Shown here: positions 22,300 through 31,516 of the stretch, piece after piece
How positions within the stretch are numbered: position 1 is the stretch's first letter
Layout: each line of letters begins with the position of its first letter
Source of the DNA: Amphirosellinia nigrospora
Lineage: Eukaryota; Ascomycota; Sordariomycetes; Xylariales; Xylariaceae
Assembly (NCBI GenBank): GCA_004123355.1
Contig: SCHM01000001.1
Span: 5,758,001 to 5,822,000, forward strand
DNA: 64,000 bases
Direction: 5' to 3'
Notes under the pieces: model-generated
Seen by the model: the letters and a program-made list of their open reading frames with translations, nothing else
Databases searched by the model: none
What the model was told of the DNA's origin: nothing
Program-made: the position numbers and the translations under genes

Positions 22300-25200
22300 A
22301 TGGCGACTCGGCTTAGTGAGCCTATTGCGATTGTAGGCAGTGCATGTCGCTTTGCCGGTTCTGCATCGTCTCCATCTAAGCTATGGGAGCAACTAAGACA
22401 GCCTCAAGATCTCCAAAAAGAAATTCCTGAAAACAGATTCAGGTGGCAGGGCTTTTATCACCCGGACGGCACATACCACGGGCATAGCAATGTCAAGCAT
22501 GCGTACTTTCTGGACGAGGATCCTGGCGTCTTGGACGCAGAGTTTTTCGGCATCAGACCGGTAGAGGCCAAAGCATTAGATCCTCAACAGAGGGTCTTGT
22601 TAGAAGTTGCGTATGAAGGACTCGAATCTGCTGGCATGTCAGTGCCGGCGCTGCGGGGCAGCGACACTGCCGTCTACGCCGGATCTATGGGTGACGATTA
22701 CGCGAAAATGATTCTTGAGGATATCCAGGACGCACCGACTTATTACGCAACAGGAGCAGCACGGAGTATACTTTCCAACCGAGTTTCGTATACGTTCGAC
22801 TGGCATGGGCCGTCCATTTCGATCGACACAGCTTGCTCTTCAAGTTTGGTTGCAGTCCATATGGCTTTACAAGCTCTGCGAGCGGGTGACTGCCGGATGG
22901 CACTGGCTTGCGGTACCAACTTGATTCTGGGACCGGAAAATTTTATCATCGAGAGCAAATTGGGCATGCTGTCTCCGGACGGGCGCAGTCGCATGTGGGA
23001 CCAAGGGGCTAACGGCTATGCTCGTGGTGATGGTGTTGCCGTTTTATTACTTAAGACCGTGCAGAGCGCCCTGGAAGATGGCGATGATATTGAATGCATT
23101 ATCCGTGAGACGGGTCTGAATCAGGATGGTGCTACTGCAGGTATTTTCTTTCGCTTAATCTTGTGTGTTTCATTGTCTCTTTTGAAAATCTTGCCGGCGA
23201 TTCCTTTTCTTCTTTAGTTATAGCTAAAGCTAACACTATCACGCAGGTATAACCATGCCTAGTGCCTCTGCACAGACAGCCCTGATACGCAGGACGTACG
23301 CGAAGGCAGGTCTTGACCTCCTTCGGCCCGAAGATCGACCTCAGTTTTTTGAGGCTCATGGAACAGGTACACCTGCTGGTGACCCTATAGAAGCCGAGGC
23401 CATACATAATGTCTTTAGTATTGCGGATGACGACCACAAGTGCGAAAAGCCACTCTACGTAGGGTCGATTAAGACGGTATTTGGGCATACAGAAGGCACT
23501 GCTGGCATTGCTGCCGTGCTCAAGGCCAGTCTAGCGATCCAGAACAAGACAATTCCCCGAATCTTTTATTTGAGAAATTGAGTGATCGCGTCGCTCCGTT
23601 CTATAAACAGATCGAGATCCCTCGGAAGGTGTTGCCATGGCCGGACGTTGCCGGTGGAACAAGAAGAGCTAGTGTTAACAGTTTTGGCTTTGTAAGTCAG
23701 AGCAGCTCTTCCAGGCCTCTTTTAGTTTCAGGACGCTTGACAAAGGGCCTAAACTCGGGAAATCTCATTACGTGATGAAGTTACTGACAATTACTAGGGA
23801 GGTGCAAATGCGCACGCTATTCTCGAGAGCTTCGATACTGTACAGAATATAAACGAAGCCGACAGGTCGTTATTTACCCCTTTCGTGTTCTCCGCATATT
23901 CCGAATCATCGCTTGCCAATATGCTCCGCAACTACGCCGCATTTTTAAATGCAGATGAGAAGGCTATCAATACCCATGACCTCGCCTGGACGCTGCGACA
24001 CCGCCGGTCTGTGCTAGGCTGGCGGGCGTCAGTTGTCGCATCGTCCCCTCACGATCTGGCCACTAAGTTACTCGCTCACATCAATGACCATGAGTCCAAT
24101 GTTGGTGTTAGAGCTCTTGCTGACACTAACAATAGAATTTTCGGCATCTTTACTGGCCAGGGGCTCAGTACATGCGCATGGCCGCTGAATTGATACAGTA
24201 CTCTGAAACTGCCAGAAACATCATTCAAGAGCTAGAGTCATTCTTACAAGAGATTCCTGATGGAGACGCCCCTACTTGGTCTCTGGCAGACGAATTGCTG
24301 GCCGAACCCGTCTCGCGAATACAGGAGGCCGCTATTTCGCAGCCATTGTGCACCGCAGTCCAGATTCTCCTTGTTGATCTTCTGCGACTAGCTGGAGTGC
24401 GCTTCCATGCGGTCGTAGGACACTCTTCAGGTTAGTGTTTCCCTATGCCGATCATAGACAAAAGCCCGAGTGTCTAATCACTAAAACTAGGCGAGATCGC
24501 GGCTGCTTATGCTGCTGGCTTCCTAACTGCTCGGGACGCCATCGTGATTTCATACTATCGTGGCGTACACCTCCGCCTGGCCTCGAGCCCAAATGGTTTT
24601 GATATCAAAGGTGCAATGTTAGCGGTTGAAACGTCGCCCGAGGATGCTGCCGAGTTATGTGCAGATAGCGTCTTCAAAAGCCGTGTCGTCGTTGCGGCAG
24701 CCAACTCGCCCTCTAGCGTGACTTTCTCCGGCGACGAGGAGGCAATCTTAGAACTAGAGGAGATACTTCAAGACGAAGGAACTTTTTACCGCCGTTTAAA
24801 AGTTGATAGAGCATACCATTCCCCACACATGCTACCTTGCTATGACCCATACGTAACCTCATTACGTCGGTATGGCATCAAGCCATTAACGCCGGAACCG
24901 AACGACTGTGTCTGGTTTTCTAGCGTCAATAGTAAAGCTGTCGATGTCAGCACGACGGGTTTAGGCGACACATACTGGGCTGAAAACCTGACCAGACCTG
25001 TTTTGTTCTCGCAAGCCATCGGCGCTGCGCTCGTGGCGCGGCCCTGCGATGCGGTGCTGGAGGTCGGACCACACCCTGCTCTAAAGAGCCCCGCAAGGTC
25101 AACTATTCAGGAAGTTCTCGGTAAAGACCTTCCGTATCATGGAACACTCACGCGTGGGAAAACAGCTGTGGAAGCTATGTCTTCTGCTCTTGGGTACCTG

Positions 25201-31200: not shown

Positions 31201-31516
31201 GCGCAGCGTGTGTGAGGATATCTCTAAACAGCTGTTTGCCAGTGACTCGAAGCCGGGCGGCGGTGCGAGCGTCACGTACGTACATGAGGTAGGTGATGAG
31301 GTGATCCCGCTTGATACGCTAGCAGCTCTTGGCCTCGACGACCATGGAGAGCGCTACGATGTCGTCCCGCGAGCAGAATGGATGACCAGAGCAATATCAA
31401 TGGGGCTGCATCCTGGTGTTGCGGCGCTTATCGATGGCATGGCAGAAGGAGGAGAAGAGTATCCCAAGCTTTTGAAAGGTGCAAGCTCATCTCTACATGC
31501 GAGCGCTCGTACTTAG
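22300..31516 (+). CDS. Highly reducing polyketide synthase, KS-AT-DH-MT-KR-ACP-R
   Basis: Seven exons: 22300-23140, 23247-23691, 23798-24430, 24491-26848, 26905-29174, 29246-29955, 30009-31516. About 2,925 residues. KS: DTACSSS (Cys179), EAHGTGT, GHTEGTAG. AT: GQG then GHSSGE. DH: GHRVQGQIVFP with LDACLQ. C-methyltransferase: LEIGAGTGG, HATSDI, LLKPGGYLI. The following region (about residues 1,850-2,150) has no NADPH-binding ER motif, so enoyl reduction must come from elsewhere. KR: ISRALGISL, VSSINC, QANYAAAN. ACP: IGLDSL with the phosphopantetheine Ser. R domain: LTGSTGLLGHH, HYISSAG, GYACSKYACE, an SDR-type reductase for reductive release. Nine frame breaks (about 23557, 24162, 27029, 27258, 27382, 27999, 28880, 28902, 29024) mostly fit one missing base in a C, G or A run; 27029 needs two. 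The AGLDSL-R end and the neighbouring enoyl reductase point to a betaenone-like aldehyde or alcohol product. Confidence 0.92.

What the first reader, a model, noticed from the sequence alone, without database searches (positions are those of the whole stretch)
22300..31516. Highly reducing PKS ending in a reductase domain, with a missing ER supplied by a neighbour
KS, AT, DH, MT, KR, ACP and a C-terminal SDR-type R domain all carry their catalytic motifs, but no ER motif is visible. A LovC-like enoyl reductase lies 7.5 kb upstream. PKSs with this layout plus a trans-ER are few; betaenone synthase is the named precedent. The gene set around it (SDR, BBE-type oxidase, methyltransferase, no P450) does not match any cluster I can name, so the product may be new.
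Basis: partly seen in the sequence, partly recalled or inferred. Interest (0 to 1): 0.8.

Follow-up and report, generated by a model that had tools for sequence, protein, structure and literature searches.

The report
Betaenone-like fungal polyketide gene cluster
A probable fungal chromosome carries a large assembly-line enzyme with three helper enzymes that together look like the machinery for a known family of ring-shaped, often plant-toxic compounds; the layout is a known one, and the exact product is unknown.

Summary
Window 22300-31516 encodes a LovB-like reducing PKS, KS-AT-DH-MT-KR-ACP, ending in a thioester-reductase (R) domain. No ER is detectable; a LovC-like enoyl reductase lies 7.5 kb upstream.

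The PKS frame is broken (6 of 14 steps without an intron candidate; about nine breaks by eye). Four housekeeping genes are interrupted too (11 of 15 steps, two of them same-frame stops), so assembly error is likelier than decay, although the PKS rate is higher.

New here: a second, diverged set in the same genome (C1:2.366-2.388 Mb) shares the PKS-R, ER, SDR and BBE-type flavoprotein. It also has a P450; none was found in the window.

The claim that the gene set matches no named cluster fails. PMC9409727 implies HR-PKS, ER, SDR, P450, dehydrogenase and FAD oxidase for betaenone; the BBE-like aldolase SthB of stemphyloxin has a 74%-identical counterpart in the betaenone producer (PMC11375781).

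Verdict: a probable betaenone/stemphyloxin-type cluster, apparently without a P450. Product unknown; identity to Bet1/SthA untested.

The parts
22300..31516 (+). Highly reducing PKS, KS-AT-DH-MT-(no ER)-KR-ACP-R, with six GT-AG introns and several frame breaks
22300..23690 (+). KS domain (two halves; intron about 23141-23246)
   Evidence: PF00109 2.9e-77, PF02801 1.6e-26; best PDB LovB 1.1e-110
24136..25180 (+). AT domain (intron 24431-24490)
   Evidence: PF00698 in two pieces
25378..26172 (+). DH domain
   Evidence: PF21089, PF14765; LovB best in PDB over the whole AT-DH piece, 2.5e-122
26830..27265 (+). C-methyltransferase domain (motif I across intron 26849-26904)
   Evidence: PF08242 1.4e-10
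27400..28893 (+). Region between MT and KR where an ER would sit; no ER detectable
   Evidence: no Pfam or NCBIfam family; no credible PDB match for 27982-28893; AlphaFold2 model unusable, pLDDT 38
28930..29954 (+). KR domain (intron 29175-29245); catalytic S, Y, N present, nucleotide-binding loop interrupted by frame breaks
   Evidence: PF08659 4.2e-37 for 29223-29975; PsoA KR 1.5e-36
30009..30240 (+). ACP, GLDSL
   Evidence: below-cutoff Pfam matches; aligns to PsoA and LovB carrier domains weakly
30490..31516 (+). Terminal thioester reductase (R) domain, SDR type
   Evidence: PF07993 4.9e-32; PsoA R 1e-57 and MxaA R 1e-17; TIGR01746 1.7e-36, below cutoff
13430..14793 (-). LovC-like trans-acting enoyl reductase (start and end read by eye; frame break near the C terminus)
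   Evidence: counterpart in second cluster 49-54% identical by piece
15933..17114 (-). Short-chain dehydrogenase/reductase (ends read by eye)
   Evidence: PF00106 2.2e-10; 36-61% by piece to second cluster
17764..19616 (+). BBE/VAO-type flavoprotein (ends read by eye; frame breaks)
   Evidence: PF01565 8.9e-10 for 18303-18719, no Pfam match for 17685-18029 and 18638-19438; 18638-19438 matches PDB MtVAO615 3.5e-54; 32-74% by piece to second cluster, whose copy is PF08031
11623..12885 (-). Possible Zn2Cys6 regulator (half of a zinc cluster by eye; no Pfam match); membership uncertain
   Evidence: no counterpart in second cluster
10101..10409 (+). SAM-methyltransferase fragment; membership doubtful
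   Evidence: PF13847 1.9e-07; no counterpart in second cluster

Best explanation
This is the core of a betaenone/stemphyloxin-type polyketide pathway. Inferred steps: the PKS builds a C-methylated, partly reduced chain, with KR, DH and MT acting in cis. The neighbouring LovC-like enoyl reductase works on the ER-less PKS and saturates chosen double bonds. A Diels-Alder closure to a decalin is plausible but not shown. The R domain releases the chain by NAD(P)H-dependent reduction to an aldehyde (or alcohol). The SDR then adjusts the oxidation state, and the BBE-type flavoprotein closes or oxidises the product, by analogy with SthB (aldol) or Sol5 (alcohol oxidation). Without a P450 the product would be less oxygenated than betaenone. 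Shown here: the domains, motifs, gene set, and conservation of the same four genes in a second cluster. Not shown: any chemistry. The frame breaks are most likely assembly errors.
For: Domains and motifs. LovB closest in PDB for KS and AT-DH, PsoA for KR and R, LovC for the ER. The genes shared with the second cluster are four: PKS-R, ER, SDR and BBE. Among the eight R-like loci scoring over 50 bits in the genome, the window's and the second cluster's alone have an ACP match directly before R and no condensation match; five have a condensation match, one is an isolated fragment. The five best of eight LovC-like ER matches lie within 8 kb of a KS match, the three weaker ones over 100 kb from one. 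Literature, passages only: betaenone uses terminal R release and a trans-ER (PMC6274466); PKS8-4 has the same layout with a stand-alone ER (PMC6657885); gene set implied in PMC9409727; SthB in PMC11375781. Controls: 11 of 15 steps in Prp8, ACC, RPB1 and another RNA-polymerase largest-subunit gene have no intron candidate either, 9 of them frame changes and 2 same-frame stops; ACC shows as one set of matches.
Against: No P450 found. PKS, ER and BBE frames are all broken as assembled. The PKS rate (6 frame changes in 9.3 kb strictly, about 9 by eye) is above the controls (9 frame changes in 23.9 kb, not recounted by eye). The R domain is only 33-47% identical by piece to that of the second cluster. 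A weaker R match at C1:4766232 (29.7 bits) also lies about 3.7 kb from a KS match with no condensation match nearby, so the window and second cluster need not be the only PKS-R genes. No expression or product data.
Confidence: 0.66

Rival explanations
1. The PKS works with R-type release, but the BBE enzyme acts like Sol5: R (or the SDR) gives a primary alcohol, which the flavoprotein oxidises back to an aldehyde and so triggers cyclisation, rather than an SthB-like aldol reaction.
For: Sol5 is a BBE-like alcohol oxidase that enables a [4+2] closure (PMC11375781, passages). A GGEC cysteine and a KSTGH histidine (read by eye) that could bind FAD are present.
Against: The closest gene-set precedent, betaenone/stemphyloxin, has the aldolase type. 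The review says its tree of BBE-like enzymes did not cluster by function, so sequence would not decide it.
Confidence: 0.3
2. The PKS is a true pseudogene; the frame breaks are real and the cluster is decaying.
For: At least six frame changes without an intron candidate, a rate above the controls; ER and BBE also broken (read by eye).
Against: Genes that should be intact carry the same kind of break (ACC 5 of 6 steps). Catalytic motifs of KS, AT, DH, KR, ACP and R are kept. Of 15 PKS stretches entered, 13 have no stop; one stop lies in an intron and one in the badly broken stretch near 28.9 kb. The second cluster and the pectate-lyase-fold gene at 47.5-50.4 kb also change frame.
Confidence: 0.15
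3. The enoyl reductase serves another enzyme, and this PKS makes an unsaturated polyene without ER help.
For: ER and PKS are 7.5 kb apart with two genes between.
Against: The same ER-SDR-PKS order recurs in the second cluster with the ER 3.3 kb from the KS match; the five best LovC-like matches all sit near a KS match.
Confidence: 0.08
4. The terminal SDR-type domain does not reduce but cyclises the chain, as R* (Dieckmann) domains of PKS-NRPSs are recalled to do.
For: The R domain's closest solved relative is in PsoA, a PKS-NRPS.
Against: Nucleotide-binding and Y..SK motifs kept; no condensation match at the locus, so no amino-acid module to supply a tetramic-acid precursor.
Confidence: 0.07

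Closest known systems
Betaenone cluster (Bet1 PKS, Phoma betae; Ugai 2015 seen only as cited)
   Same: PKS with terminal R and no working ER, trans-ER, SDR and FAD oxidase in the cluster (passages)
   Different: No P450 and no second dehydrogenase found here; sequence identity not measured
Stemphyloxin II cluster (SthB BBE-like aldolase, Parastagonospora nodorum; Li 2019 seen only as cited)
   Same: BBE-type flavoprotein in a pathway of this family (passages)
   Different: Its gene list and sequences were not seen; function of the window's BBE enzyme untested
PKS8-4 cluster, Pseudocercospora fijiensis
   Same: Same domain structure as Bet1 with R, stand-alone ER, a dehydrogenase nearby (passages)
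   Different: It has a P450; no BBE gene mentioned in the passages read
LovB/LovC (lovastatin)
   Same: Closest solved PKS for KS and AT-DH, and closest solved ER
   Different: No terminal R release: its product is released by the thioesterase LovG (passage)
Second cluster of this genome, C1:2.366-2.388 Mb
   Same: PKS-R, ER, SDR, BBE
   Different: Has a P450; 23-74% identical by piece; BBE lies on the far side of the ER instead of next to the PKS

Membership tests
HR-PKS with terminal R domain (Bet1/PKS8-4 layout) | KS-AT-DH-MT-KR-ACP in one gene | tested here: met
   read piece by piece because the frame is broken
HR-PKS with terminal R domain (Bet1/PKS8-4 layout) | R directly after ACP, no NRPS module | tested here: met
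   ACP and R in one 505-aa open piece; no condensation match at the locus
HR-PKS with terminal R domain (Bet1/PKS8-4 layout) | No functional ER in cis | tested here: met
   no family or motif found; a decayed ER fold is not excluded, model unusable
HR-PKS with terminal R domain (Bet1/PKS8-4 layout) | LovC-type trans-ER in the cluster | tested here: met
   that it acts on this PKS is inferred
Betaenone/stemphyloxin cluster | BBE/FAD-type enzyme in the cluster | tested here: met
Betaenone/stemphyloxin cluster | SDR in the cluster | tested here: met
Betaenone/stemphyloxin cluster | P450 in the cluster | tested here: inconclusive
   none among 38 window pieces scanned with Pfam and no match to the second cluster's P450 pieces; broken exons could be missed, a heme-motif scan also missed the second cluster's P450, and the genome P450 search scored 92 of 327 candidates and did not list that P450 either
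Betaenone/stemphyloxin cluster | A further dehydrogenase in the cluster | not tested
   implied by the passage in PMC9409727; not searched for as such
Betaenone/stemphyloxin cluster | PKS falls in the Bet1/SthA clade | not testable with these tools
   no Bet1/SthA sequence held
Betaenone/stemphyloxin cluster | Decalin aldehyde-derived product | not testable with these tools
   no chemistry

The most novel reading that the evidence does not exclude
A P450-free sister of the betaenone/stemphyloxin pathway in which the BBE-type protein and the SDR alone finish a decalin aldehyde, giving a bridged or reduced tricycle not yet described; one genome keeps both a P450-bearing and a P450-free version.
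Probability: 0.25. Interest if true: 0.45.

Novelty: new member of a known kind. Interest (0 to 1): 0.28.

Why it matters
It ties the BBE-type enzyme, SDR and trans-ER to the PKS-R by conservation in two diverged clusters of one genome, so the core of this pathway type can be seen apart from its P450. The two clusters are a natural pair for asking what the P450 adds and whether the BBE enzyme is an aldolase or an oxidase.

Tried and rejected
Shared Zn-cluster binding motif: CGG-N6-CCG occurs once in each of three of five promoter regions (3 against 0.39 expected, but 13 spacings tried); in the second cluster it is in one of four; dropped. AlphaFold2 on the ER-position piece 27982-28893: mean pLDDT 38, unusable, no fold search made. 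PDB search with that piece: one match at E 0.85, noise. P450 heme motif: not found in the window, but the scan also missed the second cluster's P450; the genome-wide P450 search is incomplete. First intron scans used too narrow a window or had two PKS exon frames entered wrongly; replaced. In one search the stretch entered at 28890 contains a stop, and by eye that region holds more than one break; the script also offers weak intron candidates at two steps that I count by eye as breaks. In one search, three small window pieces of the SDR and BBE genes gave no match, probably because they were cut out of frame.

Papers: PMC12881047 (boydines) uses betaenone only as a yardstick and its PKS has a cis-ER (passages); PMC8403587 gave one cytochalasin trans-ER passage; PMC9621686 is not held; a query on PMC13293291 failed for a too short term and was not repeated, so only its listing and abstract start were seen. 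Searches gave nothing useful. Naming the species was not attempted; no database of fungal genomes was at hand.

Full report
What is there. The window is G000:C1:5758001-5822000 of an unnamed 48.1-Mb genome in 11 contigs. That it is a fungus is inferred from gene content and introns. Ten open pieces from 22249 to 31513 give KS-N, KS-C, KS-AT linker, AT (two pieces), DH, a methyltransferase, KR, a weak below-cutoff ACP match and NAD_binding_4 = R. The two pieces between the methyltransferase and the KR match nothing in Pfam or NCBIfam, and 27982-28893 has no credible PDB match. Motifs (patterns recalled) are in place: KS DTACSSS, EAHGTGT and KTVFGHTE; AT GHSSG; DH HRVQGQIVFP and DACLQ; KR S..Y...N; ACP GLDSL; R TGSTGLLG and YACSK; no ER NADPH motif in three frames. 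The MT motif GAGTG is completed by the exon after intron 26849-26904. Closest solved relatives: LovB for KS (1.1e-110) and AT-DH (2.5e-122), PsoA for KR and R.

Helpers. The ER (13430-14793, minus) matches LovC at 4.5e-15. An SDR follows (15933-17114, minus), then a BBE/VAO-type flavoprotein (17764-19616, plus), one piece of which is FAD_binding_4 and another matches MtVAO615, the only PDB match. A fungal rhodopsin-domain gene lies at 20.5-20.9 kb. A methyltransferase fragment at 10.1 kb has Pfam support; a possible Zn2Cys6 regulator at 11.6-12.9 kb has none and rests on my eye. No P450 turned up in 38 window pieces, and the P450 pieces of the second cluster have no match in the window at E 1e-4. 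Because exons are broken and not every stretch was scanned, this is suggestive, not proof.

Frame breaks. Six introns are phase-consistent GT-AG introns: 23141-23246 (by eye; the script's top three differ), 23692-23797, 24431-24490, 26849-26904, 29175-29245 and 29956-30008. Six of the 14 steps between open stretches have no intron candidate; by eye, using continuity of the conserved protein, I count about nine breaks in 9.3 kb. The same script on four housekeeping genes of this assembly finds 2 of 4 steps unexplained in Prp8, 5 of 6 in ACC, 2 of 2 in an RNA-polymerase largest-subunit gene and 2 of 3 in RPB1, together 11 of 15 in 23.9 kb; two of the eleven are same-frame stops, nine are frame changes. 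ACC shows as a single set of matches, so its breaks are unlikely to be real. The PKS rate is higher than the control rate, by about 1.7 times on the strict count. I still read this as mostly assembly error. All eight zones that I marked hold a run of three or more identical bases, a weak statement because such runs are common.

A second cluster. Searching the genome with the ACP-R piece gave 28 matches. The best after self is C1:2386765, with an ACP match directly before it and a LovC-like ER, 51% identical to the window's, at C1:2374984. Forty kb fetched there contain BBE (plus), P450 (minus), ER (minus), SDR (minus; its Pfam score is just under the cutoff) and PKS-R (plus). tblastn of 27 window pieces at E 1e-3 finds the PKS, ER, SDR and BBE there, and not the methyltransferase, regulator, rhodopsin, Tle1-like, TPR or 38-kb genes; three small SDR/BBE pieces also gave nothing. 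In reverse, 256 pieces of the second region match only those four genes, a dispersed repeat and one short stretch at 40.9 kb in the window. Identities by piece: ER 49-54%, SDR 36-61%, BBE 32-74%, KR 32-62%, ACP 44-50%, R 33-47%, some AT/DH pieces 23-29%. So these four genes stay together over a large divergence, the best evidence here that the ER, SDR and BBE enzyme belong with the PKS.

Place in the genome. Of the eight R-like loci over 50 bits (window included), five have a condensation match near R, as expected for PKS-NRPSs; the window and the second cluster have none and have ACP directly before R; one (C1:10434690) is an isolated fragment. Eight weaker R-side matches were not examined; one, C1:4766232, lies about 3.7 kb from a KS match without a condensation match and may be another PKS-R. 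The five best of eight LovC-like ER matches lie within 8 kb of a KS match; the other three lie over 100 kb from one.

Literature (passages only unless said). Betaenone: terminal R release with a trans-ER (PMC6274466); HR-PKS with trans-ER forms the decalin (PMC10063976). [quoted passage not shown] PKS8-4 of P. fijiensis has Bet1's domain structure and a stand-alone ER, and falls with LovB, compactin and betaenone PKSs (PMC6657885). SthB is a BBE-like protein catalysing a stereoselective aldol step to stemphyloxin II, with a 74%-identical enzyme in the betaenone producer (PMC11375781); Sol5 is a BBE-like alcohol oxidase enabling a [4+2] closure (same paper). Betaenone-like clusters are called by prediction in Pyrenophora (PMC7232245) and Alternaria (PMC12565302), and listed for Polycephalomycetaceae (PMC11050985). 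Ugai 2015 and Li 2019 were seen only as cited.

Mechanism. Shown: architecture, motifs, gene set, conservation. Inferred: trans-ER action as in LovB/LovC; reductive release by R; decalin formation; SDR and BBE tailoring. Between aldolase (SthB-like) and oxidase (Sol5-like) for the BBE enzyme I lean to the former because of the gene-set precedent, without sequence evidence.

Verdict.

Noticed in passing
window 9215-9358(+), 34775-34918(-), 42352-42496(+); C1:2368265-2368417: A dispersed repeat of about 145 bp flanks the window's cluster and also occurs in the second cluster; at least 40 copies at 87-100% identity in the genome (40 of 284 candidates scored), SINE- or MITE-like.
   Followed up: partly
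G000:C1:2365800-2387900: Second, diverged PKS-R/ER/SDR/BBE cluster with a P450 in the same genome.
   Followed up: yes
window 40780-40983; C1:2368926-2369118: Another stretch of about 200 bp, 68% identical between the window and the second cluster region, possibly a repeat.
   Followed up: no
window 7049-7994(+): Gene matching the T6SS Tle1-like phospholipase catalytic family (PF09994) in two pieces.
   Followed up: no
window 47509-50351(-): Pectate-lyase-fold gene (PF12708) read in two frames; another likely assembly frame break.
   Followed up: partly
window 36694-37014(-): Stretch that looks by eye like a HET (heterokaryon incompatibility) domain; Pfam found nothing at E 0.001.
   Followed up: partly
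G000:C1:10434690-10435199: Isolated fragment of an R-like domain with no ACP or condensation match nearby, possibly a relic.
   Followed up: no
G000:C1:4766232-4771296: KS matches with a weak R match about 3.7 kb away and no condensation match; possibly another PKS ending in R.
   Followed up: no
window 53194-54039(+): Ap4A phosphorylase gene (PF19327, PF09830), ordinary housekeeping.
   Followed up: no
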